Shown here one piece after another: positions 2-33,845 of a DNA stretch of 44,233 bases. The first letter of the stretch is position 1; each line of letters starts with the position of its first letter. Below the pieces are notes generated by a model, which was not told where the DNA came from, did no database searches, and saw only the letters and a program-made list of their open reading frames with translations. Both the position numbers and the translations under genes were made by a program. Source of the stretch: a virus; IMG/VR virus record IMGVR_UViG_3300044695_003148, positions 1-44,233 of that record; one strand, given 5' to 3'.

Positions 2-268
2 GAGGATTTTGATACTGAATATTTTGAGGTATTAACAAAAGTAATAGATATGGGTGGATTTGGTAATTTTTTACCAATGAAATCATATAATGATAAATAC
101 CAAATAAGACTCAATTCAATAGATCCTGATAATTTAAAAATTAAATATACCATTAAGTTAAAAAATTCTTGGGGTGAAGACAAACAAGGAGAACTACCAC
201 TTAAAGATTTATTGAATCTCATCAACCAACCGGGATTATTTGACCCAATGGATTATAGAACTAGTTAG
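2..268 (+). CDS. Hypothetical protein, 5' end outside window
   Basis: The reading frame is open from base 2 with no stop upstream, so the gene very probably begins before the window. An internal ATG lies at base 50. The visible 88 residues are mixed charged and hydrophobic with no motif I recognise. The C-terminus ends in a short leucine-rich stretch (LPLKDLLNLINQPGLF) before the stop at 266-268. It converges with the peptidase gene on the other strand, and the two coding ends overlap by 8 bases. The function is unknown. Confidence 0.6.
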   Translation, partial: EDFDTEYFEVLTKVIDMGGFGNFLPMKSYNDKYQIRLNSIDPDNLKIKYTIKLKNSWGEDKQGELPLKDLLNLINQPGLFDPMDYRTS

Positions 269-1298
269 ATCCGTATATCCTTTCTTGTAAAATTTCATAA
301 AGTTTAAAACAATCGTCATTGTCAATAAACAATCCTGTTCCATCATAAACGTCCGATATCATAATTCCACATTCTTCCTCAAACACGTCAACTGAAACCA
401 ATGAATGGATCTTATCAATCTCACTTTCGACAATATCATCGTCCTCAAACTTATCATAAGTTGGATAAACAAATGGTTTATATTCAAATCCGTATTTTTT
501 AAGACCCAGATCTTTAACCAAGTTTTTGCCGGCCTCAATTGCTCGTACAACATCGTCAACACAAACAAACTCATTTGATGTATGCATATTATAGTATCCA
601 CAAGAAATGTTAATACAAGAAAAATCGGACTTTTGTTTGATTTGCATGATATCCGTATAAGGGTGAGACTGAACCATCATTTCATTTTTAAATGACTTTA
701 TAACTGATGGTAGAGCCAATTTAAAGAACTCTCCGTCAACGTCGAATAACTGTGTTCCTGAGCAAGATAATGATATCAAGTGGTCACCAGGCGCATCGTA
801 TTGGGCGCAATACCCAACATCCTTAAGGAAATCAACATTGCAGTTTCTTGATCCATGACAACCAGTTTCTTCTGACACAAAGAAGGCCACCTTTACTTTA
901 TCCAATTGTTTAAGCAATTCCAAACAGATAAAAATACCACATTTGTCGTCACCACCAATACCCGTTGGGTTTCCTTTTTCATTGTATGCCTTTAAACATG
1001 GGACAGGTTCTTTATCAAAAGTTTTTCCAAATGTGTTTGGTCTTGATAACATTTCTTCTTTAACGATAATTTCATCAACAAGTTCGTGTACCGTATCTGT
1101 GTGGGAAATAAACATTGGATAGAATTCACCTTCATCTAACGTTCCTTTTGTTGCGTAGATATTATTGTGTTCATCACAAGTAAGGGTAACACCATCCATA
1201 TCACTAATTGATGACATGATATACTCAACCATCTTAGTCTCTTCATAAGTTTTGGTTGGGACTGAAAGTAATTCTTTAAATTTATCTATATTCATCAT
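261..1298 (-). CDS. M20-family (peptidase T-like) metallopeptidase
   Basis: This is a predicted two-zinc cytoplasmic aminopeptidase or tripeptidase of the M20 clan. A complete set of metal and catalytic residues is visible in 345 residues: HTD at 66-68, GGDD at 115-118, SEETG at 142-146 (general base Glu143 and metal Glu144), the Asp of QYDAPGD at 168, and the His of YYNMHTSNE at 239. The length is slightly below the roughly 400 residues of peptidase T, so the dimerisation lid may be reduced. Two Met codons lie at the start (1298 and 1295) and either could be used. It is divergent from the tagged basic gene at 1367. M20 peptidases are unusual phage cargo. A role in recycling peptides, or in trimming peptides made by the nearby Clp ATPase with host ClpP, is only an inference. 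Confidence 0.85.
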   Translation of the reverse strand: MMNIDKFKELLSVPTKTYEETKMVEYIMSSISDMDGVTLTCDEHNNIYATKGTLDEGEFYPMFISHTDTVHELVDEIIVKEEMLSRPNTFGKTFDKEPVPCLKAYNEKGNPTGIGGDDKCGIFICLELLKQLDKVKVAFFVSEETGCHGSRNCNVDFLKDVGYCAQYDAPGDHLISLSCSGTQLFDVDGEFFKLALPSVIKSFKNEMMVQSHPYTDIMQIKQKSDFSCINISCGYYNMHTSNEFVCVDDVVRAIEAGKNLVKDLGLKKYGFEYKPFVYPTYDKFEDDDIVESEIDKIHSLVSVDVFEEECGIMISDVYDGTGLFIDNDDCFKLYEILQERIYGSN

Positions 1299-1366: not shown

Positions 1367-1609
1367 ATGAAAATTGTAAGACTAACAGAAAATGATTTAG
1401 TTCGTATTGTAAGACGTGTTATTAATGAAGAGGAAGATGATATGGATGAGTTAATTGATATAAATGTGGAGGTTGAAAATCCCGAATGTTGGGAAAACAC
1501 AACATCTTCTGATGGTAAACGAAAAAAACGAAGAAGAAAAAGTTCAAGTTGTTCTCGCAAATACAAAACTAAATCAAAAACAAGTCATTACGGAAATAAT
1601 TGGCATTAA
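1367..1609 (+). CDS. Small basic protein with candidate capsid-targeting N-terminus
   Basis: This 80-residue protein has three parts. Residues 1-21 form an amphipathic segment (MKIVRLTENDLVRIVRRVIN followed by E). The middle is acidic and Asp/Glu-rich. The C-terminus is strongly basic and Ser-rich (KRKKRRRKSSSCSRKYKTK). The N-terminal segment resembles those of the proteins at 20299 and 22207 and ends in I-N-E. That matches the (L/I)-x-E cut-site rule of T4-type prohead proteases. I infer an internal head protein that is targeted to the prohead, trimmed, and bound to DNA through its basic tail. A TATTTAT box lies upstream. The reading frame in the opposite strand (1282-1566) is a shadow. The function has not been shown. 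Confidence 0.7.
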   Translation: MKIVRLTENDLVRIVRRVINEEEDDMDELIDINVEVENPECWENTTSSDGKRKKRRRKSSSCSRKYKTKSKTSHYGNNWH

Positions 1610-1632: not shown

Positions 1633-2394
1633 ATGAATAGAAGTTATAGTAAAATTAGACACATACTACAAGCCAATCTGATGTTGGAGGGAAGAATGAT
1701 GTCGGAGAAAAGAATATTACTTGAAGAAGATAAAAAAGAAGGGGATATAGTTGCCTCTCCTAGAGACCCTTCCGAAATTGCAACGGGAATGATTGATGCA
1801 CCGTTTAATGTTATTAATTCTAATGGTCAATATGGAAAACAATATTATTACACTTGTGTGTCTAACAAAGATCTCCCACTAGATAAACAAACACCAGCTG
1901 AAAAAGCCGGCGCAATAGTTGACGGAAATAATAATTTAGTTACCGCTGCGGGGTTAGGGTTAATACCAGGATATCAGAATAAACTTAATGTTGCATGTAA
2001 ACCTATTTACGATAACTTAGCAAAATGGAGAAAAACATTTTGTGCTAATCTTAAAAATAAAACAAAACCTAATTACGCTTGGAATTGTCCTGAAGCTGCA
2101 AAACCAGTTGTGGCGGCAGCAGTAACAACTGCAACACCTGAGGAATATATTAACCTTTACAATTCAAATTCACTTAAATCCAACCCTAAAATAGTACAAC
2201 TAATAAAGGATGGTAACATAACAGTGATAGATAAGGAGAATGTTAGTGATAATGGGATGGAGAGAACCTATGAACTAAGATATTTTACAACCGGAAAAAC
2301 ATTCACATTAGGACAGGGAACTGGACAAGATAAAGTGATAAATTCCCCAAAAGGTACAGATATTACCGATTTGGTTGTGTCGTTGACTAAATAG
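1633..2394 (+). CDS. Hypothetical virion-type protein with N-terminal helix
   Basis: This 253-residue protein follows the tagged basic gene by 23 bases. Its N-terminus (MNRSYSKIRHILQANLMLEG, then an RILLEE stretch) is an amphipathic helix with L-L-E, a possible prohead-protease site; it is a looser variant of the tag in the previous gene. The body (roughly residues 70-160) contains several Cys (YYYTCVSNKD, NVACKPIYDN, FCANLKN, AWNCPEA) and Trp residues. It resembles a small globular domain, perhaps a peptidoglycan-binding or extracellular one, but I cannot name a family. The C-terminal 70 residues carry no clear motif. The leader is A-rich and no TATTTAT box precedes it, so it probably shares the upstream transcript. 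Confidence 0.65.
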   Translation: MNRSYSKIRHILQANLMLEGRMMSEKRILLEEDKKEGDIVASPRDPSEIATGMIDAPFNVINSNGQYGKQYYYTCVSNKDLPLDKQTPAEKAGAIVDGNNNLVTAAGLGLIPGYQNKLNVACKPIYDNLAKWRKTFCANLKNKTKPNYAWNCPEAAKPVVAAAVTTATPEEYINLYNSNSLKSNPKIVQLIKDGNITVIDKENVSDNGMERTYELRYFTTGKTFTLGQGTGQDKVINSPKGTDITDLVVSLTK

Positions 2395-2401
2395 TCTATA
2401 A

Positions 2402-2917
2402 TTATTTAAACATAGTTAAAACACAATAAAAAATATCACCATTGGTGTAGGTTACCCCACCTTGTGTGATTTTATTGGATGTTTTACTACCAACACATAT
2501 ACCATCATATTGACTACTTAACAATAACTTATTGTGTGGAGGTGAATTTTTCCAAACGTTTAAAGCCATTGTTGCACATTCCTCATCTGTTGAAAGTTTT
2601 ATAAATGTGCATAAATTTTCCCCAACACATATGTAGTCAAAATTGTAAACATAGTTTATCCTATCTATAAAATTATCGAACGTCTTAGAATTAGATGTTT
2701 GTATTTTTTGGGAATGATCTAAAGGAATGGTCGATGTCTCAACCATATAATTTAACATCTGTTTATTTGCAATTTTTGCTTTTTCAGAATAACATAATGG
2801 TGGTAATAGGTTTTCTTTACGATATTCGTTGACTTTTTTAATTATTAATTGATCAACATTTTGACCAAAAAAGAAAAAGAAAACAAAAATAAAAATAAAT
2901 AATAAAAAAGTTTTCAT
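2402..2917 (-). CDS. Secreted CAP (SCP/PR-1) domain protein
   Basis: This 171-residue protein begins with a signal peptide: Lys2 followed by about 15 hydrophobic residues rich in Phe, with a likely cut near Gly18-Gln19. The remainder is a compact CAP domain. Its signs are an N-terminal helix (VNEYRKENLLPPL), the first metal-site His in LDHSQ, the GEN signature (VGENL), the WKNSPPHNKLLL helix with the second His, and the closing YCVLTM strand. Bacterial CAP proteins are exported and have poorly understood roles at the cell surface. The gene sits between two unrelated genes on a mixed-strand accessory stretch and has its own upstream TATTTAT box. It was probably acquired from a host. A role in envelope modification or host exclusion is inference. 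Confidence 0.8.
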   Translation of the reverse strand: MKTFLLFIFIFVFFFFFGQNVDQLIIKKVNEYRKENLLPPLCYSEKAKIANKQMLNYMVETSTIPLDHSQKIQTSNSKTFDNFIDRINYVYNFDYICVGENLCTFIKLSTDEECATMALNVWKNSPPHNKLLLSSQYDGICVGSKTSNKITQGGVTYTNGDIFYCVLTMFK

Positions 2918-2945
2918 AGTTTCTGTTTGTTTCTACAAATATATT

Positions 2946-2968: not shown

Positions 2969-5026
2969 CTATTCCTTCTTTTTTCTAACTCTTTTTGGTT
3001 TTTCCACAATAACCTCATCAACTTTATTACCAATTACTACGTTCTCATCAACAATCGTTAAATTGTAGTTCTCATCCTCATTAATTTCAGACATTAAAAT
3101 CTTCTCAGAAATTAAATCCTCAATCTTATCTTGGATTGCCCTTTTGATCGGTCTTGCTCCGAATGTTTCGTCAAACCCAACTTTGGATATATAATCAATT
3201 AGTGATTGGTCGTAAGTAAAGTTGTATTTTTTACCCTCAACACGTTTTAACAATCTATCAATCTCCAACTTGGTAATAACGTCAATGTGTTCTTTCTTAA
3301 GTGAGTTGAAGACAATAACGTCATCAATACGATTTAAGAATTCAGGGGCAAAAAACTTACTAAGTTCTTTTTTAAGGATGTCTCTCTTTTGTTCTTCTTG
3401 TATAACATTACTTGAATTATTACTTTTAAATCCAACACCTGTGCCAAAGTCGTGTAGTTTTTTAACACCAATATTGGAGGTCATAATTATTAAACAATTC
3501 TTAAAGTTAATTTTTCTACCTAATGAGTCTGTTATATGTCCATCATCCAAAAGTTGTAATAATGTTGAGAATATATCTTTATGTGCTTTCTCAATTTCAT
3601 CAAACAAAATAACCGAATATGGTTTGTTTTTAACTTGTTCTGTAAGTTGTCCACCATCTTCATGACCAACATATCCTGGAGGTGACCCAATCAAACGAGA
3701 AATTGTGTGTTTTTCTTGATATTCAGACATATCAATACGGATGAGATTATCGGGACTACCAAAGATTTCTTTTGCCAATTGTTTTGCTAAGAATGTTTTA
3801 CCGACACCTGTTGAACCTAAGAAGATAAATGAACCAATCGGTTTATTTGGATCTTTAATCCCAATTCTATTTCTACGAATAGATTTTGTGATTTTCAAAA
3901 CTGCCTCTTCTTGACCAATAACGATTGAGTTAAGGTTTTTATCTAAATTAATAAGTGAGTTTTTCTCATCTAAATTTATGTTTGAAATTGGAATTTTGGT
4001 CATGTTGGAAACAACCTCATAGATTAATTCTTCCGGTATATTTCTTTTACTAATTTTAAGTTCTTCGTTAAACTTTTTCTTCTCAATTTCTAAATTAGTC
4101 AAAACATTTCTCTCTCTATCTCGAAGATTTGCGGCTTGCTCATAATCTTGACGCTTAATTACGTTAATTTTTTCCAATTTAATGTCGGAAGCTTTACGTT
4201 TTAAGTTTTCAATAATTTCGGGAAGTTTAATATCTATTTGCATTCTTGCCCCAACCTCATCCAATATATCAAACGCCTTATCGGGAAACTCACGATCTGT
4301 GATATATCTATCGGCCAACTCAACAAATATCCGAAGAGTTTCATCACTGTAAATAACTTTATGATGGTCTTCGTATTTTGATTTACTTTGTTTAAGGATT
4401 TCAAATGTTTCTTCTTTGGTTGATGGATCAACGACGACTTTTTGAAATCTCCTCTCTAACGCACCATCTTTTTCGAAGTTAGTTCTATATTCATCCAAAG
4501 TAGTTGCTCCAATACATTGGATCTCACCACGAGATAAGGCTGGTTTAAATATGTTGGAGGCATCTAACGAACCTGAACTATTTCCCGCACCTACAATAGT
4601 GTGAATTTCATCAATAAAAAGTATGATATTTGGACTATTTTGTAATTCCTCAATAATAACCTTCATTCTTTCTTCAAACTGACCACGATATTTGGTGCCC
4701 GCAACAATTGAGTTCATATCCAACGATACGATTCTTTTATCTAATAAATTTTTTGGACATTCTCCGCCATGTATCATCATTGCTAAACCTTCAACAATGG
4801 CTGTTTTACCACATCCAGGTTCACCAATTATAATTGGATTATTTTTCTTACGTCTTGAAAGAATCTGAGCAATCCTAAGGATTTCCTTTTGTCTACCAAC
4901 AACTGGATCAAGTTTTCCTTCTTCCGCTAATTTATTTAAATCCTTACTAAAGTTATCAAGTACTGGTGTTCCGCTATCCGGCTTCTTTTTCCCATTATCT
5001 CCCTTATCATCTACAAAGTCTAACAT
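2969..5026 (-). CDS. ClpC/ClpA-like AAA+ unfoldase lacking the N-terminal domain
   Basis: This 685-residue Hsp100 ATPase has two AAA+ modules. The first has Walker A GEPGCGKT (68-75), Walker B LFIDE (about 136-140) and a GALERRFQ arginine-finger region (188-195). The second has Walker A GSTGVGKT (404-411), Walker B LFDE (474-477) and the arginine finger in FLNRID (563-568). Between them lies a short coiled segment with a UVR-like stretch (QDYEQAANLRDRE, 293-305), a feature of ClpC. The double Clp-N repeat of about 140 residues is missing; a 30-residue linker precedes module 1. A VGF tripeptide at 531-533 sits where ClpC and ClpX carry their ClpP-docking loop, so coupling to host ClpP is plausible. 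No clpP gene is visible. The gene is divergent from the small genes at 5203. Confidence 0.92.
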   Translation of the reverse strand: MLDFVDDKGDNGKKKPDSGTPVLDNFSKDLNKLAEEGKLDPVVGRQKEILRIAQILSRRKKNNPIIIGEPGCGKTAIVEGLAMMIHGGECPKNLLDKRIVSLDMNSIVAGTKYRGQFEERMKVIIEELQNSPNIILFIDEIHTIVGAGNSSGSLDASNIFKPALSRGEIQCIGATTLDEYRTNFEKDGALERRFQKVVVDPSTKEETFEILKQSKSKYEDHHKVIYSDETLRIFVELADRYITDREFPDKAFDILDEVGARMQIDIKLPEIIENLKRKASDIKLEKINVIKRQDYEQAANLRDRERNVLTNLEIEKKKFNEELKISKRNIPEELIYEVVSNMTKIPISNINLDEKNSLINLDKNLNSIVIGQEEAVLKITKSIRRNRIGIKDPNKPIGSFIFLGSTGVGKTFLAKQLAKEIFGSPDNLIRIDMSEYQEKHTISRLIGSPPGYVGHEDGGQLTEQVKNKPYSVILFDEIEKAHKDIFSTLLQLLDDGHITDSLGRKINFKNCLIIMTSNIGVKKLHDFGTGVGFKSNNSSNVIQEEQKRDILKKELSKFFAPEFLNRIDDVIVFNSLKKEHIDVITKLEIDRLLKRVEGKKYNFTYDQSLIDYISKVGFDETFGARPIKRAIQDKIEDLISEKILMSEINEDENYNLTIVDENVVIGNKVDEVIVEKPKRVRKKKE

Positions 5027-28179: not shown

Positions 28180-28923
28180 TTATTTTTTTAAAATTTCTTG
28201 AACCAAATCAAAATATAATTTTTTATATTTTTTAATCATAGTTCTTATCTCCTTAGTTGATAGATTTGTCATTTCCCTAAGTTCAAATAAAATAATATTT
28301 TTATTAAACTTATTATTGTTTGTGTCCGGAAAAATTGTTCCGTAATTCTCAAACAAATCATATATTGCAGACCCTAATTTGTGCTCTTGTTCGTCACAAT
28401 CTTTTTGGTTTAAATTTTCCTTTAATCTTTGTAAAAATTTTTTAATAATATATTCAGAGTTTATTTCATCATTTTCTATAATATAGGATAATTCTGGCCT
28501 ATTTGATAAATCGGAAGATATATCTTCATAAGATATCTTTCTATTCATTTCTTTTTGATCTTTCATTATCTGACCCATAAGATAATTTTTACAAATAGTT
28601 CCAAAATATGAGTATGCTTTTTTTTCTTTTGAGGGCTTAAATTTGTCCATTTTTGTCATAAGAAAAGAATGTGTGTCGGCATGAATTTCTTCATAATTCA
28701 TGTCTTTCCTATATAGTTTATACCTTCTAATAATTGAAGATATCATCTTATCTAAAGGGTCTTTTAAGAACTCATTATATATTTTATTTCTTTCTCCGTT
28801 ACTTTCTGTAACTAAAAATAATCTAACTGCGTCCTCTTCTCGCACATCAAAATAATTATTTGTTGTTGGTTTTCTACCTTTCTTTTTCTTTTCTATGGTT
28901 GGATCAATCTCAAGTTCTATCAT
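28180..28923 (-). CDS. RNA polymerase sigma factor, T4 gp55-like
   Basis: This 247-residue protein contains a sigma-70 region 2-like core at about 60-130: NYEEIHADTHSFLMTKMDKF (76-95), then KPSKEKKAYSYFGTICKNYL (96-115), which matches the pattern of region 2.1-2.4 in short phage sigma factors. The second half is helical (LRQ-type, with IILFELREMTNLSTKEIRTM), possibly region 4-like. T4 gp55 is the late sigma factor and recognises a TATAAATA -10. Here the shared box before late genes is TATTTAT. The gene begins at the stop of the preceding GT gene (TAATG overlap) and lies next to the tail block it may activate. The exact fold assignment needs profile search. Confidence 0.75.
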   Translation of the reverse strand: MIELEIDPTIEKKKKGRKPTTNNYFDVREEDAVRLFLVTESNGERNKIYNEFLKDPLDKMISSIIRRYKLYRKDMNYEEIHADTHSFLMTKMDKFKPSKEKKAYSYFGTICKNYLMGQIMKDQKEMNRKISYEDISSDLSNRPELSYIIENDEINSEYIIKKFLQRLKENLNQKDCDEQEHKLGSAIYDLFENYGTIFPDTNNNKFNKNIILFELREMTNLSTKEIRTMIKKYKKLYFDLVQEILKK

Positions 28924-29729
28924 TAAGCATTTTGTGGTTCATAATTTATGTCCCTTTGGGTGGTAAAAAAACATTCTTTTTTTGCTGATTCTATCCAGAA
29001 TCTAGCTTCTTCTGAATCCATACTATTAGCACCATTTTTATAATTCCAAAAAATTGATCCTTCTCTTAAATTCATATGTTTGTAACCAATTTTTGGTATA
29101 GTTAAAATTTTTGCCGAATTATGTGTCATTCTTAAGAAAAGTTCATAACCAAACGTTAACTTTATATTTGATTTCATTTTACCAACTCTCTCATACATTT
29201 CTTTTTTAAAGACCATACCTGAAGTTTGGAAGTTTTGAAATGTTTGTAAAGTTTCGTTTGTTAAATACCCCATATCAGATGAAATATTTGCTGCGAATGT
29301 AGCCTCATTTGTAAACCCAGCAAAAACTAATTTATCATCAACATCAACCACAATTGGTAAAAAAGCGTCAATATCTTTATAGATGGACATATATTTATGT
29401 GCATTTTTAAACCAAATGTTTGAATACTCATCATCGAACTCTAAAATTGAACACCATTCTGATTTGGCTAATTCAACACCCCTATTAACTTGATTTGCGA
29501 AATTTGGATCCTCAGTCCAAGACTCGAGAACAACGGTCAATCCGCTAAAATCGTAGGCATTTAAATGGTTAGTTAAGTATGGTTCATCACCGTGAACAAT
29601 AATAAGCTCGTCCGCATTTTTATGTTGATGTTGTACGGATTGAATAGCTCTCGAAAAGAAGTCTTCAAAACCAATGGCTTTACCTGATTTTATAGGTAAT
29701 ATAACTGAAATTGTATTTTTATTTTCCAT
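28923..29729 (-). CDS. GT2-type glycosyltransferase
   Basis: This 268-residue GT-A glycosyltransferase has an N-terminal Rossmann-like start (ISVILPIKSG), the family stretch RAIQSVQHQHKNADELIIVH and an acidic cluster LEFDDEYSN (about 116-124) in place of D-x-D. Then come QTSGMVFKKEMYERVG and KLTFGYELFLRMTH, typical of the acceptor-side region of GT2 enzymes. Donor and acceptor sugar are unknown. It is the last glycosyltransferase of the operon and overlaps the sigma gene by 1 base. Confidence 0.8.
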   Translation of the reverse strand: MENKNTISVILPIKSGKAIGFEDFFSRAIQSVQHQHKNADELIIVHGDEPYLTNHLNAYDFSGLTVVLESWTEDPNFANQVNRGVELAKSEWCSILEFDDEYSNIWFKNAHKYMSIYKDIDAFLPIVVDVDDKLVFAGFTNEATFAANISSDMGYLTNETLQTFQNFQTSGMVFKKEMYERVGKMKSNIKLTFGYELFLRMTHNSAKILTIPKIGYKHMNLREGSIFWNYKNGANSMDSEEARFWIESAKKECFFTTQRDINYEPQNA

Positions 29730-29731
29730 AA

Positions 29732-30787
29732 TTAAATTGTTTCAAATTTAGATAGTTGATCTTCAAAAGAAGTAAGTCTTGTTGACATAAGGTTGTTAAA
29801 AAGGTCTGTAGTGTTTTTTTCAAAACTCGACAAAGAAGGTAAAGAATTTACAGTTTCTTCCATTTTACTATAAAGTTCTGGATTGATGTTATCCTCTAAC
29901 CAATTTTGTATAAAATCAGAAAGTACATCGTTCAATATTGTTTTATTGTTAATCCAAATACCATTATTTTCATCCATCCATTCAGGAACGATATCAGGAA
30001 CCAAACCAATAACAGGAATACCCATCTTCATTGACTCGAGTGGGAAAGTTCCGTAAGAACTTGATTGGTCAATCCAAATAGAAACAAAACTATCCTTCAT
30101 GGCTTCTGCGAATTCTTTTTCGGTTAAACCTCTTAAATCTCTAAAAGTAATCCATCTATATTGTGGGAACTTAGAGTAGAAAGTTTTTATAAGATTAACA
30201 GTATCTCTCTGATCTCTTGTATGAACATTAACAATTGTCTTGGGTGGAAATTCGGCTTTTTTGAAATTATCCGAAATTGATGGTTGTAAAACATCTACGG
30301 AGATTTGTCTCATGACACCATTTATATATTCTTTTTGTTTTTCTGAGGTTGTTATACATTTATGAAAACCTAATTGAGACCATGTTTGTCCTGGTTGTAA
30401 GGTCTCAAAAATATGGTCATATGCTTGACACAAAACAATTTTACCACAAGGTAATTTTGTAATTTGATCCATAATGAAACCATAAATTTCAGGAATAATA
30501 ATAAGGTCATCTGGAGATATCTCCAAATTTGTCCCGTCGATTGACGTATGCGGCAATTCCATATATTCCTCACCCATCCAATCAGAAACACCAAAATACT
30601 CTGGTTTCTCATGTAGAATAATAGGGTTATACCCATCTTTTTTTAATGCCATGGCCATCTCATAAATGTATCTTACGGATGCCTTCACATTTCCTTTAGT
30701 ATCTTGTACCACAAAATACAATCTTGATTTCTTTTCTTTCATGTTAGAAATCGACAATTCTAATTTTTGAATTTGTTCTTCGTTCAT
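29732..30787 (-). CDS. GT-B glycosyltransferase (GT4-like)
   Basis: This 351-residue protein has a GT-B architecture. The N-terminal domain has YIYEMAMALKKDGYNPIILH (40-59). The C-terminal domain has WITFRDLRGLTEKEFAEAMK (212-231) and an ESMKMGIPVIG segment (251-261) with Glu251, equivalent to the donor-phosphate-binding E-x7-E motif of GT4-like enzymes. Donor unknown. It is followed after 2 bases by the GT2 gene. Confidence 0.8.
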   Translation of the reverse strand: MNEEQIQKLELSISNMKEKKSRLYFVVQDTKGNVKASVRYIYEMAMALKKDGYNPIILHEKPEYFGVSDWMGEEYMELPHTSIDGTNLEISPDDLIIIPEIYGFIMDQITKLPCGKIVLCQAYDHIFETLQPGQTWSQLGFHKCITTSEKQKEYINGVMRQISVDVLQPSISDNFKKAEFPPKTIVNVHTRDQRDTVNLIKTFYSKFPQYRWITFRDLRGLTEKEFAEAMKDSFVSIWIDQSSSYGTFPLESMKMGIPVIGLVPDIVPEWMDENNGIWINNKTILNDVLSDFIQNWLEDNINPELYSKMEETVNSLPSLSSFEKNTTDLFNNLMSTRLTSFEDQLSKFETI

Positions 30788-30794
30788 ACTTAAA

Positions 30795-31052
30795 TTATAG
30801 TTTATTTATTATTTTTTTTACCAATAATGAATTGAATGCAATTTTAAATGGGATTGAAACTTCATTACTTTTCATCCCTAAATTCTCGTCAACAATCTCA
30901 TCTTCTGTTAATACAATATCTACCAACATTTTTATTAGTTCATATTTAACTAAATGAATTTGAGAATCACCACTCACACTTTTTAACTCTACCTCTTTAT
31001 CAACCTTATCGATATCAATGTAATAGTTTTGACCAAACGTACTAAACAACAT
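30795..31052 (-). CDS. Small hypothetical protein, 85 residues
   Basis: The start lies inside the end of the HAD gene (11-base overlap). The sequence has a beta-type start (MLFSTFGQNYYIDIDKVDKE), then a helical, acidic body (HLVKYELIKMLVDIVLTEDE) and a hydrophobic end. Function unknown. Confidence 0.6.
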   Translation of the reverse strand: MLFSTFGQNYYIDIDKVDKEVELKSVSGDSQIHLVKYELIKMLVDIVLTEDEIVDENLGMKSNEVSIPFKIAFNSLLVKKIINKL

Positions 31053-31707
31053 GTTTTAGTTCTTTTATTAGTTTACCAAATTCTGAAAGTGAAGTAATCT
31101 CATATTCAGAATTGATGTGTTTATTATACTCGGTGGTAAATTTAATGACCACCTTTCCTTCGTGTTTTTCTAATAGTAAGGTAGGATCCGCAGTAAGTAA
31201 AACATCTACTTGATCCCACATAGATTTTTTTGTAATTTCACTAAAGAAAAATACCTTTTCCAATAAACACCCAAATTTAGATAGGAAGAATAATGAGGAT
31301 GGTTTTGATTTACCAATCTCACTTGACACAATCATTAATTCATTCTCATCTCTTAACTCAAGATACAAATCGTTTAACATGTTAAATGTTGTCATCTCCG
31401 TTGATGGGGCGTGTCCGAATAATTCCATCGTATATTCCTCATACATAAATGAAAATAATTCCTCACTATTACGAAACGCAAAATGTTTGGTCAAGTCTAA
31501 AGAGTCAACGTCGGTTAGTTTTTTATATTCAAAAGGAATTACGTCGGACACCTCCAATTCAGTGTTTCCAGATATGTCCACATTATATGTTTTACCTAAA
31601 TACCCATCCGGATCACTTTCAATTAAGTGTTTTTCGTAAAGTTGTTCAAATTTGGTAATAGTATCCCTTAATACCCCATTAATATCAATCCCTATTCTCT
31701 TTGTCAT
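31042..31707 (-). CDS. HAD-superfamily hydrolase-like protein
   Basis: This 221-residue protein opens with IGIDINGVLRDT (5-16), matching HAD motif I except that the second Asp of D-x-D is Asn10. Motif II-like MIVSSEIGKSKPS and a motif IV-like VDVLLTADPTLLL follow in the right order. Loss of the second Asp could mean altered catalysis. Phage HAD proteins often act on nucleotides or sugar phosphates, which would fit the surrounding sugar operon. The end overlaps the PhoH gene by 23 bases. Confidence 0.75.
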   Translation of the reverse strand: MTKRIGIDINGVLRDTITKFEQLYEKHLIESDPDGYLGKTYNVDISGNTELEVSDVIPFEYKKLTDVDSLDLTKHFAFRNSEELFSFMYEEYTMELFGHAPSTEMTTFNMLNDLYLELRDENELMIVSSEIGKSKPSSLFFLSKFGCLLEKVFFFSEITKKSMWDQVDVLLTADPTLLLEKHEGKVVIKFTTEYNKHINSEYEITSLSEFGKLIKELKHVV

Positions 31708-32431
31708 ATTCTGATAATATTTTAGTAATTAATGGGTTTCTAACGTTCTTAGCGTCCCTAAAATCATAAACACCAATGTCCGGAACATTACTGAATTTTT
31801 GTATTGCGTCGTATAGTCCTGATTGTTTTTTATCTTTATACCTATCCGTCTGCTCAAGATCACCAGATATAAAGAATTTACTATTATACCCTATCCTTGT
31901 CAATAGTAGTTTCATTTGATTGGGGGTTGAATTTTGAGCCTCCTCAAAAATTAGGATTGAGTTGTCTATATTCATACCTCTCATATAGGCTAAAGCAAAC
32001 ACCTCAATAATTTCGGCCTTCTTTAATTCTTCCCTTGATTCTTTACCAATAATTTTATTTAATAAATAATAGGAGGGGAATATATATGGATCCAATTTTT
32101 CTTCAAGACCTCCGGGAAGGCTACCTAATTTCTCTTCTGCCTCAACCGCCGGTCTAACAATTATTATTTTCTCATATGAGTTGTTTGTATCCACTAAAAG
32201 ATCGACTGCCGCCTTCATTGCGATAAAACTCTTACCAACACCTGCAGGTCCCGAAGCAACCGTAATTTGATTATTCTTTAAAATGTTATAATAATCTTCT
32301 TGGTGTTCAGATAAAAATTTATTTTTTTGTTTCCGTTTAATTATTGAGTTAATTAAATCCTTTTTTGAAAAAGGTTTAGAATCTTTAGTCTCCAATTTAA
32401 TTATTGGATCTGGTTTTTTTCTTATTGCCAT
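31685..32431 (-). CDS. phoH: PhoH-like ATPase
   Basis: This 248-residue RecA-like ATPase has Walker A GPAGVGKS (61-68), VRPAVEAEEKLGSLPGGLEE (92-111) typical of PhoH, and Walker B ILIFEEAQN (159-167). ISGDLEQTD lies in the sensor region. PhoH proteins are common in phages of many hosts, but their substrate (often RNA) is not settled. It overlaps the HAD gene and is followed by the cytidylyltransferase gene after 3 bases. Confidence 0.92.
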   Translation of the reverse strand: MAIRKKPDPIIKLETKDSKPFSKKDLINSIIKRKQKNKFLSEHQEDYYNILKNNQITVASGPAGVGKSFIAMKAAVDLLVDTNNSYEKIIIVRPAVEAEEKLGSLPGGLEEKLDPYIFPSYYLLNKIIGKESREELKKAEIIEVFALAYMRGMNIDNSILIFEEAQNSTPNQMKLLLTRIGYNSKFFISGDLEQTDRYKDKKQSGLYDAIQKFSNVPDIGVYDFRDAKNVRNPLITKILSEYDKENRD

Positions 32432-32434
32432 ATT

Positions 32435-32878
32435 TTAATTAATAAATCTTTTTTTACTCTCACCATCATAGATTTTTTTTCTAAGGTTTGTTGTTGAGTA
32501 ATTATGGTCACGTTTATTGTATATAATTCTAATCCCCCTCTTTTGACAAATACTTTTTCCCGTGTAGTCAATGTCTTTATAATCCTCACCAATTATTCGG
32601 ACATCTAAATCCAATGAACTAAAAAGTTCTTCTAACTCATCTTCAGTATTGTAGGGGATTATCTTATCAACATATTTAACCGCATCCAATTGCAAGTATC
32701 TTTCTACAAGGGATTGGATTGGTTTATTTTTATCTTTTCTATCTATTGTAGGATCGTTCTGTAATGCACATATTAAATAATCACAATGTTTTTTACATTC
32801 TTCTAACATAATGATATGTCCTGTATGTAGGAGATCAAAAGTACTACATGTTATTCCTACCGTTTTATTTTTTTCCAT
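32435..32878 (-). CDS. Cytidylyltransferase-fold enzyme (TagD-like)
   Basis: This 147-residue protein has GITCSTFDLLHTGHIIMLEE (8-27), containing the HTGH of the HxGH nucleotidyltransferase fold at 18-21. It also has RIIGEDYKDIDYTGK (94-108) and a late STTNLRKKI (128-136), the usual I-S-T-S/T-x-L-R motif. Members include glycerol-3-phosphate and heptose-phosphate transferases; the sugar or alcohol is not identifiable here. Its setting next to sugar genes supports a role in making an activated building block for glycans. Confidence 0.85.
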   Translation of the reverse strand: MEKNKTVGITCSTFDLLHTGHIIMLEECKKHCDYLICALQNDPTIDRKDKNKPIQSLVERYLQLDAVKYVDKIIPYNTEDELEELFSSLDLDVRIIGEDYKDIDYTGKSICQKRGIRIIYNKRDHNYSTTNLRKKIYDGESKKRFIN

Positions 32879-33845
32879 AATATTCTAACCAATAATTTAT
32901 CATTTCATCTAACATTGTTTCAAATGTATATTTTGGTTTCCATTTTAACTCATTTCTAAGTTTAGATGAATCACCTTTTAAATCATAAAGTTCCTCAGGT
33001 CTAAAATGTTTTTCATTGACTTCAATATAATTAGTAAAATCTAAACCTATTTTTGAAAATGTGTAGTCACATAAATCTTTTACTGAGTGAGATATACCGG
33101 TAGAGCACACATAATCATCTGGTTTGTCAGTTTGTAACATCATCCACATTGCTTCAACATAATCTTTAGCGTGACCCCAATCTCTTGTAGCGTCTAAATT
33201 GCCTAAATATAACTTATCTTGTAACCCTAATTTAATTCTAACCGCAGCTTTTACGACTTTATTGGTTACGAAATTTGTCCCTCTTCTTGGTGATTCGTGG
33301 TTGAATAATATTCCATTCCATATTTTCATACCATAAGAGTTTCTATAATTTCTACAAATGTTGTATGAAAATACTTTAGCACAACCATATGGTGAGACCG
33401 GATTTAATTGTGTTGTTTCTCTTTGGAACCCGTCATCATCAATAGTATTACCAAACATTTCTGATGATGAAGCTTGATAAATTTTTATTTTTGTGTCAAC
33501 TAATTTACATGCTTCTAAAACGTTTAATGTTCCTAAACCAGTTACATTTGCCGTATATATTGGTTGGTCAAAAGATATTCTAACGTGAGATTGTGCTGCC
33601 AAATTATAAACCTCTTGAGGTTTAATTTCACTAATTACTCTAATTATTGATGATAAGTCGGTTAGATCTGCGTAATGTAAATTTAATTTATCGAAAACAC
33701 TATCTAATCTTGATGTTTGATTTTCAGATACCGAATTTCTTTTTAAAGTTCCATGAACTTCATACCCTTTTTCTAATAATAACTCAGCAAGATATGATCC
33801 GTCTTGACCATTTATCCCTGTAATGAGTGCCACTTTTTTATCCAT
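32865..33845 (-). CDS. gmd: GDP-mannose 4,6-dehydratase
   Basis: This 326-residue short-chain dehydrogenase/reductase catalyses GDP-mannose to GDP-4-keto-6-deoxymannose. It has the NAD(P)-binding TGINGQDGSYLAE (9-21), the KRNS loop (35-38), SSSEMFG (126-132) and the Tyr153-x3-Lys157 pair (YGCAK). The NHESPRRGTNFVT region and RDWGHAKDYVEAMW are hallmarks of Gmd. The substrate GDP-mannose would have to come from the host, since no manC or manB is in the window. The product feeds either fucose synthesis or, with the next gene, colitose synthesis. It overlaps neighbours at both ends. Confidence 0.95.
   Translation of the reverse strand: MDKKVALITGINGQDGSYLAELLLEKGYEVHGTLKRNSVSENQTSRLDSVFDKLNLHYADLTDLSSIIRVISEIKPQEVYNLAAQSHVRISFDQPIYTANVTGLGTLNVLEACKLVDTKIKIYQASSSEMFGNTIDDDGFQRETTQLNPVSPYGCAKVFSYNICRNYRNSYGMKIWNGILFNHESPRRGTNFVTNKVVKAAVRIKLGLQDKLYLGNLDATRDWGHAKDYVEAMWMMLQTDKPDDYVCSTGISHSVKDLCDYTFSKIGLDFTNYIEVNEKHFRPEELYDLKGDSSKLRNELKWKPKYTFETMLDEMINYWLEYYGKK

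What the first reader, a model, noticed from the sequence alone, without database searches (positions are those of the whole stretch)
2402..2917. A secreted CAP-domain protein carried by a phage
A Phe-rich signal peptide and the CAP residues (His, GEN, second His, W-x-x-SPPH) are intact, so it should be exported by the host. Secreted CAP proteins in phages are rare. With a TATTTAT box it would be made late. It might change the cell surface, act in release, or block competitors.
Basis: partly seen in the sequence, partly recalled or inferred. Interest (0 to 1): 0.52.

Follow-up and report, generated by a model that had tools for sequence, protein, structure and literature searches.

The report
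Secreted CAP protein in phage cargo
An uncultured relative of phage T4 carries a small, exportable CAP-fold protein in a swappable cargo position of its genome, so the phage probably uses it to alter the envelope of the infected cell, though what it does there is unknown.

Summary
Window 2402-2917 (minus) encodes a 171-aa protein with a signal peptide (likely cut before Gln19) and a CAP domain (over the Pfam cut-off; predicted fold matches bacterial CAP structures at Z 16). Two parts of the interpretation fail. TATTTAT does look like this phage's late box, but it precedes only 1 of 9 CAP genes; 8 of 9 carry TAnnTTTG, the main promoter box of Bacteroidota, so early expression is likelier. Phage CAP proteins are not unique either: Bacillus phages have published ones. 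New is the setting: the gene fills a position between an ATPase and a peptidase gene that are adjacent in relatives, often with a second secreted family, and it has moved between phages whose portals share only 22% identity. Best explanation: accessory cargo exported to the host periplasm, perhaps for superinfection exclusion, by analogy with the plasmid protein PrgA. Mechanism untested, host unproven.

The parts
2402..2917 (-). CAP-domain protein CDS, 171 aa
2864..2917 (-). signal peptide, residues 1-18, predicted cut before Gln19 (Gln invariant in 9 of 9)
   Evidence: sequence
2534..2716 (-). CAP site: His68 (codon 2714-2716), Glu100 of GEN (2618-2620), Ser125 (2543-2545), His128 (2534-2536)
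   Evidence: sequence; alignments
2936..2943 (-). TATATTTG, Bacteroidota sigma-A -7 box (TAnnTTTG), 26 nt before the start codon
   Evidence: consensus from PMC9723704 and PMC6847099
2946..2952 (-).
2969..5026 (-). ClpA/C-like double AAA ATPase, left border of the cargo position (ATPase in the text)
261..1298 (-). M20/M42-type peptidase gene, right border of the cargo position
1633..2394 (+). gene of unknown function inside the cargo position, convergent with CAP; candidate internal head protein
1367..1609 (+). 80-aa gene inside the cargo position, RLTExDLxRIV N-terminus followed by I-N-E; candidate internal head protein

Best explanation
The gene is accessory cargo (moron-like) of a T4-type phage of a Bacteroidota host. 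Shown: a CAP-fold protein with a conserved signal peptide and CAP site, under purifying selection, in a genome position that is empty in close relatives, and exchanged between distant phages. Strongly suggested: transcription from the host's own sigma-A promoter, hence from early in infection. Inferred: Sec export and cleavage before Gln19 put a 153-residue CAP domain in the periplasm of the infected cell. There it most likely binds or cuts an envelope component, so that the cell is altered or closed to competing phages (superinfection exclusion), as PrgA, a plasmid-borne protein with a CAP domain, closes its cell to unwanted conjugation. The confidence given is for this whole chain; I put the identity and exported nature at about 0.95, accessory cargo at about 0.8, and superinfection exclusion at about 0.3.
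For: Fold and family. Signal peptide and CAP site kept in 9 of 9 distinct sequences down to 55% identity. dN/dS 0.06-0.13 in six closer pairs. TAnnTTTG in 8 of 9 upstream regions at -24 to -27 (0 of 1000 shuffles reach this; the nine are related sequences); TATTTAT in 1 of 9; box identity. Hairpin plus T-run directly after CAP in 5 of 9. Cargo position: of 28 records with ATPase and peptidase gene in one direction, 18 have a 20-68 bp junction and 10 are filled. Transfer: the CAP proteins of L180 and L183 are 95.3% identical while their portals are 21.9% identical. Second secreted family in the same position, 5 of 6 examined genes with TAnnTTTG. PrgA precedent: CAP domain by PDB title, surface exclusion and protease role by PMC10588982 passages.
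Against: No function was measured. PrgA is wall-anchored on a long stalk in a Gram-positive host; this protein is one small domain. The host is inferred: the best portal match among cultured phages is a Microcystis phage (41.6% identity over 70%), ahead of Flavobacterium phage immuto (38.6%), and neither has a CAP match. The upstream regions are not independent (about six groups), and one relative (L180) has no TAnnTTTG. The window and L003 have no clear terminator hairpin. PADLOC gave no match for CAP. BB0689, one of the two best structural matches, is reported to bind none of the lipids tested (PMC11784157 passages), so even the basic activity of bacterial CAP domains is open.
Confidence: 0.4

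Rival explanations
1. A release factor: the CAP domain works in the periplasm on peptidoglycan or envelope links late in infection and helps lysis.
For: Periplasmic location predicted; a VanY-type peptidase, a usual lysis enzyme, is encoded in the related record L004; many CAP proteins of bacteria sit at the cell wall (recalled).
Against: Promoter class is host-type, not the TATTTAT class; the gene is absent from the ATPase-peptidase junction of close relatives, whereas lysis genes should be constant; no known peptidoglycan hydrolase signature found.
Confidence: 0.15
2. An envelope or host-fitness factor not aimed at phages: it changes a host envelope or CAP-dependent process, or protects the infected cell from its surroundings, so that infection is more productive.
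For: Flavobacteriales-type genomes have CAP proteins of their own (17 of 27); early-type promoter; cargo with other secreted proteins.
Against: Nothing specific; the closest cellular CAP found is only 28% identical over 124 columns, so simple mimicry of a known host protein is not shown.
Confidence: 0.3
3. The hydrophobic N-terminus is not cut and anchors the CAP domain in the inner membrane, facing the periplasm.
For: The core is unusually long and Phe-rich in this copy; the model has low confidence there.
Against: All 9 sequences have Gly, Ser or Thr and then Gln at the same place, the same pattern as the other secreted proteins of this position, while the sequence of the core itself drifts.
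Confidence: 0.12
4. A virion or injected protein.
For: Its neighbours on the opposite strand look like internal head proteins with prohead-protease sites.
Against: A signal peptide would take it out of the cytoplasm where heads assemble; host-type promoter.
Confidence: 0.04

Closest known systems
Secreted LysM/YkwD-like CAP proteins of Bacillus phages Stahl, Slash, Staley (records) and Stills (PMC4541274)
   Same: Phage-encoded, annotated as secreted, CAP domain, and in Stahl a gene followed by an annotated terminator; role stated as unknown for Stills
   Different: Those carry LysM and infect a Gram-positive host; the present family has the CAP domain alone, is only weakly similar (31% over 71%, E 0.4) and sits in T4-type phages with Bacteroidota features
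BB0689 of Borrelia burgdorferi (4d53) and the SCP-domain protein of Bacillus anthracis (4ifa)
   Same: Same fold, Z 15.9 (124 residues, rmsd 2.0) and 16.0 (131 residues, rmsd 2.9)
   Different: Cellular; BB0689 is an outer-membrane lipoprotein; 23% and 19% identity
PrgA of enterococcal plasmid pCF10 (6z9k, 6z9l)
   Same: CAP domain on a mobile element, exported; gives surface exclusion; what this may work like
   Different: Large, stalked, wall-anchored; Z only 8.1-9.3; protease role not shown for the phage protein
SCP-domain proteins of uncultured Caudovirales in BFVD (A0A6J5Q7R3, A0A6J5RBE5)
   Same: Phage proteins with the same predicted fold (E 1.6e-7 and 5.1e-7)
   Different: 14-16% identity, TM 0.5-0.6; context not examined here
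CAP-containing 832-aa protein of a genome in the order of the DnaK match (L290)
   Same: CAP after a signal peptide of the same type; 28% identity over 124 columns
   Different: Cellular, followed by about 650 residues without a Pfam match

Membership tests
CAP superfamily (PF00188) | Profile score over the curated cut-off | tested here: met
   28.9 bits against 21.1
CAP superfamily (PF00188) | Alpha-beta-alpha CAP fold | tested here: met
   model pLDDT 81.1; the top rows of the PDB comparison are CAP proteins, Z up to 16
CAP superfamily (PF00188) | Two His and the Glu of GEN | tested here: met
   His68, Glu100, His128 invariant in 9 of 9; geometry not measured
CAP superfamily (PF00188) | Second Glu of the eukaryotic tetrad (recalled) | not tested
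   Ser125 stands in W-K-N-S; no residue-level superposition was available
CAP superfamily (PF00188) | Metal binding or enzyme activity | not testable with these tools
   needs purified protein
YkwD family (TIGR02909) | Score over NCBI cut-off | tested here: not met
   28.2 bits against 171
LysM-CAP proteins of Bacillus phages | LysM domain before CAP | tested here: not met
   only CAP found in 171 aa
Moron (independent phage cargo unit; definition recalled) | Extra gene between two genes that are adjacent in relatives | tested here: met
   18 empty against 10 filled junctions of 28
Moron (independent phage cargo unit; definition recalled) | Own host-type promoter | tested here: met
   TAnnTTTG in 8 of 9; sequence only, no transcript data
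Moron (independent phage cargo unit; definition recalled) | Own terminator | tested here: inconclusive
   hairpin and T-run in 5 of 9, not clear in the window
Superinfection exclusion factor | Blocks entry of a second phage | not testable with these tools
   needs infection tests
Phage late gene of this phage group | TATTTAT box conserved before the gene | tested here: not met
   TATTTAT before 1 of 9 CAP genes

The most novel reading that the evidence does not exclude
T4-type phages of Bacteroidota keep a dedicated cargo position, downstream of a ClpA/C-like ATPase, for secreted proteins expressed early from the host's own promoter. The CAP protein and the unnamed 140-aa secreted family are two of its effectors, traded between distant phages, that remodel the periplasm to shut out competing phages; CAP-based exclusion would then be shared by phages and conjugative plasmids.
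Probability: 0.2. Interest if true: 0.65.

Novelty: new member of a known kind. Interest (0 to 1): 0.42.

Why it matters
CAP proteins are found from plants and animals to bacteria, yet their bacterial role is mostly unknown. A small, single-domain, phage-borne version that is under selection, moves between phages and is present or absent at one junction gives a clean natural comparison for testing what a bacterial CAP domain does. The cargo position also offers a list of unknown secreted phage proteins that may act on the envelope of Bacteroidota.

Tried and rejected
Late expression from TATTTAT: the box itself looks real (11 of 51 window genes at -8 to -40, shuffled mean 1.3; 7 of 41 ORFs in the immuto structural stretch, shuffled mean 0.5), but it is in 1 of 9 CAP upstream regions, at -35, and is lost in L003, the nearest distinct relative. 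Rejected for this gene.

Every filled junction holds CAP: this was true of the 10 filled junctions, but 8 of those 10 were fetched through CAP. Searching with the second secreted family found 7 co-directional junctions filled without a CAP family member (L314, L315, L317, L318, L320, L322, L323). In one search the script printed 15 of 28 with CAP; I dropped 5 rows (L314, L318, L324, L329, L330) where the broad profile had hit the second secreted protein itself, presumably by its signal peptide, leaving 10 of 28. One search covered the whole records of 14 of these 28 loci with the Pfam CAP model: the four dropped rows included there (L314, L318, L324, L329) have no match; G587, the record of L338, has an unrelated CAP elsewhere (9.7e-13).

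Close cellular relatives: none among 550 pattern stretches in genome contigs; 3 of 42 genomes of the order of G123 at E 0.001 (best 3.8e-8); 0 of 395 of the phylum at 1e-4 (the tool warns that an empty answer without a positive control shows little). The first AlphaFold job with 4 sequences was poor (pLDDT 67.7) and was not used. Cultured carriers of the distant CAPs: L165 none, L073 and L170 one weak match each; second secreted family none. Papers: searches for CAP plus phage terms and YkwD gave only Stills as a phage case; this is an open-licence library, so it does not show that nothing else is in print.

Full report
OBSERVATION. The ORF at 2402-2917 minus codes for 171 residues. Pfam finds CAP at 28.9 bits (cut-off 21.1, E 2.2e-6); PHROGs gives a 'sporulation protein' family of the moron class (8.7e-7); NCBIfam's YkwD model is hit far below its cut-off (28.2 of 171 bits). 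The protein begins with Met-Lys, a long Phe-rich core, then Gly-Gln. There is no Cys at the cut, so it is not a lipoprotein, and the CAP fold runs to the last residues, which leaves no room for a T9SS sorting domain. By a simple hydropathy rule of my own it has the strongest N-terminal hydrophobic stretch of 51 window genes. SignalP was not available.

FOLD. Structure prediction with 13 phage sequences gave pLDDT 81.1 and pTM 0.76. Most blocks of the mature domain are above 85; the stretch of residues 61-90, which holds His68, is weaker (block means 51-69). Foldseek against the PDB puts 4d53 (BB0689) at 1.6e-6 and 4ifa at 9.5e-6. The VIA-align second look gives Z 16.0 for 4ifa (131 residues, rmsd 2.9) and 15.9 for 4d53 (124 residues, rmsd 2.0), with GAPR-1, PR-1, Pry1, venom CRISPs and PrgA (9.3) below. 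So this is a CAP domain by sequence and by fold.

RELATIVES. Two scans of IMG/VR gave 14 loci, which hold 9 distinct sequences including the window's own. Identities within the first four-sequence set run from 92% to 55%. In 9 of 9 the N-terminus is Met-Lys, hydrophobic core, then Gln at the same column; D-H-S, G-E-N and W-K-x-S-x-x-H-N are invariant, as are three Cys (window residues 103, 141, 165). The core of the signal peptide drifts while its type stays. dN/dS (NG86) is 0.06 to 0.13 in six closer pairs; the seventh pair, window with L024, is near saturation (0.29 over 1.37).

HOW COMMON. The Pfam CAP model was run on the records of 112 of 160 loci that had been fetched through the neighbour ATPase or the portal, not through CAP: 9 of 112 match at E 0.01 (4 of 47, 2 of 50, 3 of 15). 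Most records are fragments, so this is a lower bound. A profile of the family itself adds L073 and L079, which Pfam missed. Several of these other CAPs are quite different proteins with their own signal peptides. Published or annotated phage CAPs exist: Bacillus phages Stahl, Slash and Staley (records) and Stills, where the text says the role is unknown (PMC4541274, passages). BFVD holds SCP-domain proteins of uncultured Caudovirales and giant viruses.

GENOME POSITION. In the window the order on the minus strand is ClpA/C-like ATPase, CAP, peptidase, with two opposite genes between CAP and the peptidase. In 28 records with ATPase and peptidase in one direction, 18 have 20-68 bp between them, among them L005 whose ATPase is 92% identical to the window's; 10 have a filled position of 1.7-2.6 kb, all with CAP. 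Eight of those ten were fetched through CAP, so the pairing is biased: a search with a second family of about 140-residue secreted proteins from the same position found 28 loci, 10 with the CAP family and 7 co-directional positions filled without it. The position is therefore a slot for secreted cargo, not a CAP-only site.

TRANSFER. L180 and L183 carry CAP proteins that are 95.3% identical (dS 0.36, dN 0.02), but their portal proteins are 21.9% identical and L180 lacks the ATPase-CAP-peptidase neighbourhood. L174 and L175 have CAP at another place as well, next to members of the opposite-strand families. The gene moves between phages.

PROMOTER. TATTTAT lies 8-40 nt before 11 of 51 window genes (shuffled mean 1.3, 0 of 500 shuffles as high), among them portal, prohead protease and CAP itself; the terminase gene has it at -12, just outside the counted range. 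The same box is enriched in the structural stretch of the cultured Flavobacterium phage immuto (7 of 41, shuffled mean 0.5). At CAP it fails: 1 of 9 upstream regions has it. TAnnTTTG is at -24 to -27 in 8 of 9 (0 of 1000 shuffles; the regions fall into about six related groups, of which five have it). TAnnTTTG is the sigma-A -7 box of flavobacteria (PMC9723704, PMC6847099, passages). Five of six examined genes of the second secreted family and 5 of 7 distant CAP genes have it too, although in three of the latter (L069, L070, L073) it lies only 12 nt before the ATG. A hairpin and T-run follows CAP directly in L024, L174, L175, L177 and L180. So these genes look like separate units read by the host's own polymerase. 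Phage early genes are usually read that way (general knowledge), which is why I expect early expression; I had no transcript data.

HOST. Not proven. For Bacteroidota: the promoter box; Gln after the signal peptide (recalled as typical there); no excess of Shine-Dalgarno motifs (4 of 46 against 3.4 shuffled); a DnaK in the related record L003 that is 79% identical to that of a Flavobacteriales genome. Against: the best cultured portal match is Microcystis phage Mel-JY01 (41.6%), just ahead of immuto (38.6%). Neither has a CAP match.

MECHANISM. Shown: family, fold, conserved export signal and site, selection, accessory position, transfer. Suggested by sequence: host-promoter expression. Inferred: export, cleavage, periplasmic location. 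Guess: the target. An accessory, exchangeable, early, exported gene fits a role in competition or host modification better than a core role in lysis or in the virion. The nearest mobile-element precedent is PrgA, which has a CAP domain (PDB titles) and is described as giving surface exclusion, with a protease domain that likely cuts PrgB (PMC10588982, passages; the original 2020 paper was not held). The phage protein is not a PrgA: it is one small domain. BB0689 bound none of the tested lipids, as reported in PMC11784157 (passages), so a lipid role should not be assumed.

VERDICT. A real and well-conserved secreted phage CAP protein, a new member of a known kind, in a cargo slot that I did not find described. 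Moderately interesting; the function remains open and is testable.

Noticed in passing
window 1367-1609 and 1633-2394; relatives in L175, L177, L183: Families with short N-terminal leaders (RLTExDLxRIV..., MNRSYSKIRHI...) followed by [ILV]-x-E, like prohead-protease sites of T4 internal proteins (recalled). 13 of 13 distinct RLTExDL proteins in loci up to L184 have [ILV]-x-E within 14 residues. Candidate injected head proteins, clustered with the secreted cargo.
   Followed up: partly
L024 9718-10140, L177 7114-7536, L183 6546-6968 and 6978-7394, L175 7526-7942, L017 8097-8519: A second family of about 140-residue secreted proteins in the same cargo position, no Pfam or PHROGs match; 28 loci in IMG/VR. 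One weak PADLOC hit (PDC-M15A, E 0.002).
   Followed up: partly
window, e.g. before 9288, 11293, 13099, 14553, 15633, 20299, 22212, 22622, 27797: TATTTAT box before structural genes, shared with Flavobacterium phage immuto; a likely late promoter motif of Bacteroidota T4-type phages.
   Followed up: partly
window 28923-33845: Minus-strand genes with a glycosyltransferase and a GDP-mannose 4,6-dehydratase-like gene; possible sugar-modification cluster.
   Followed up: no
L003 1820-3676: A full DnaK gene next to the ClpA/C-like ATPase in relatives, 79% identical to a Flavobacteriales DnaK; absent from that place in the window.
   Followed up: partly
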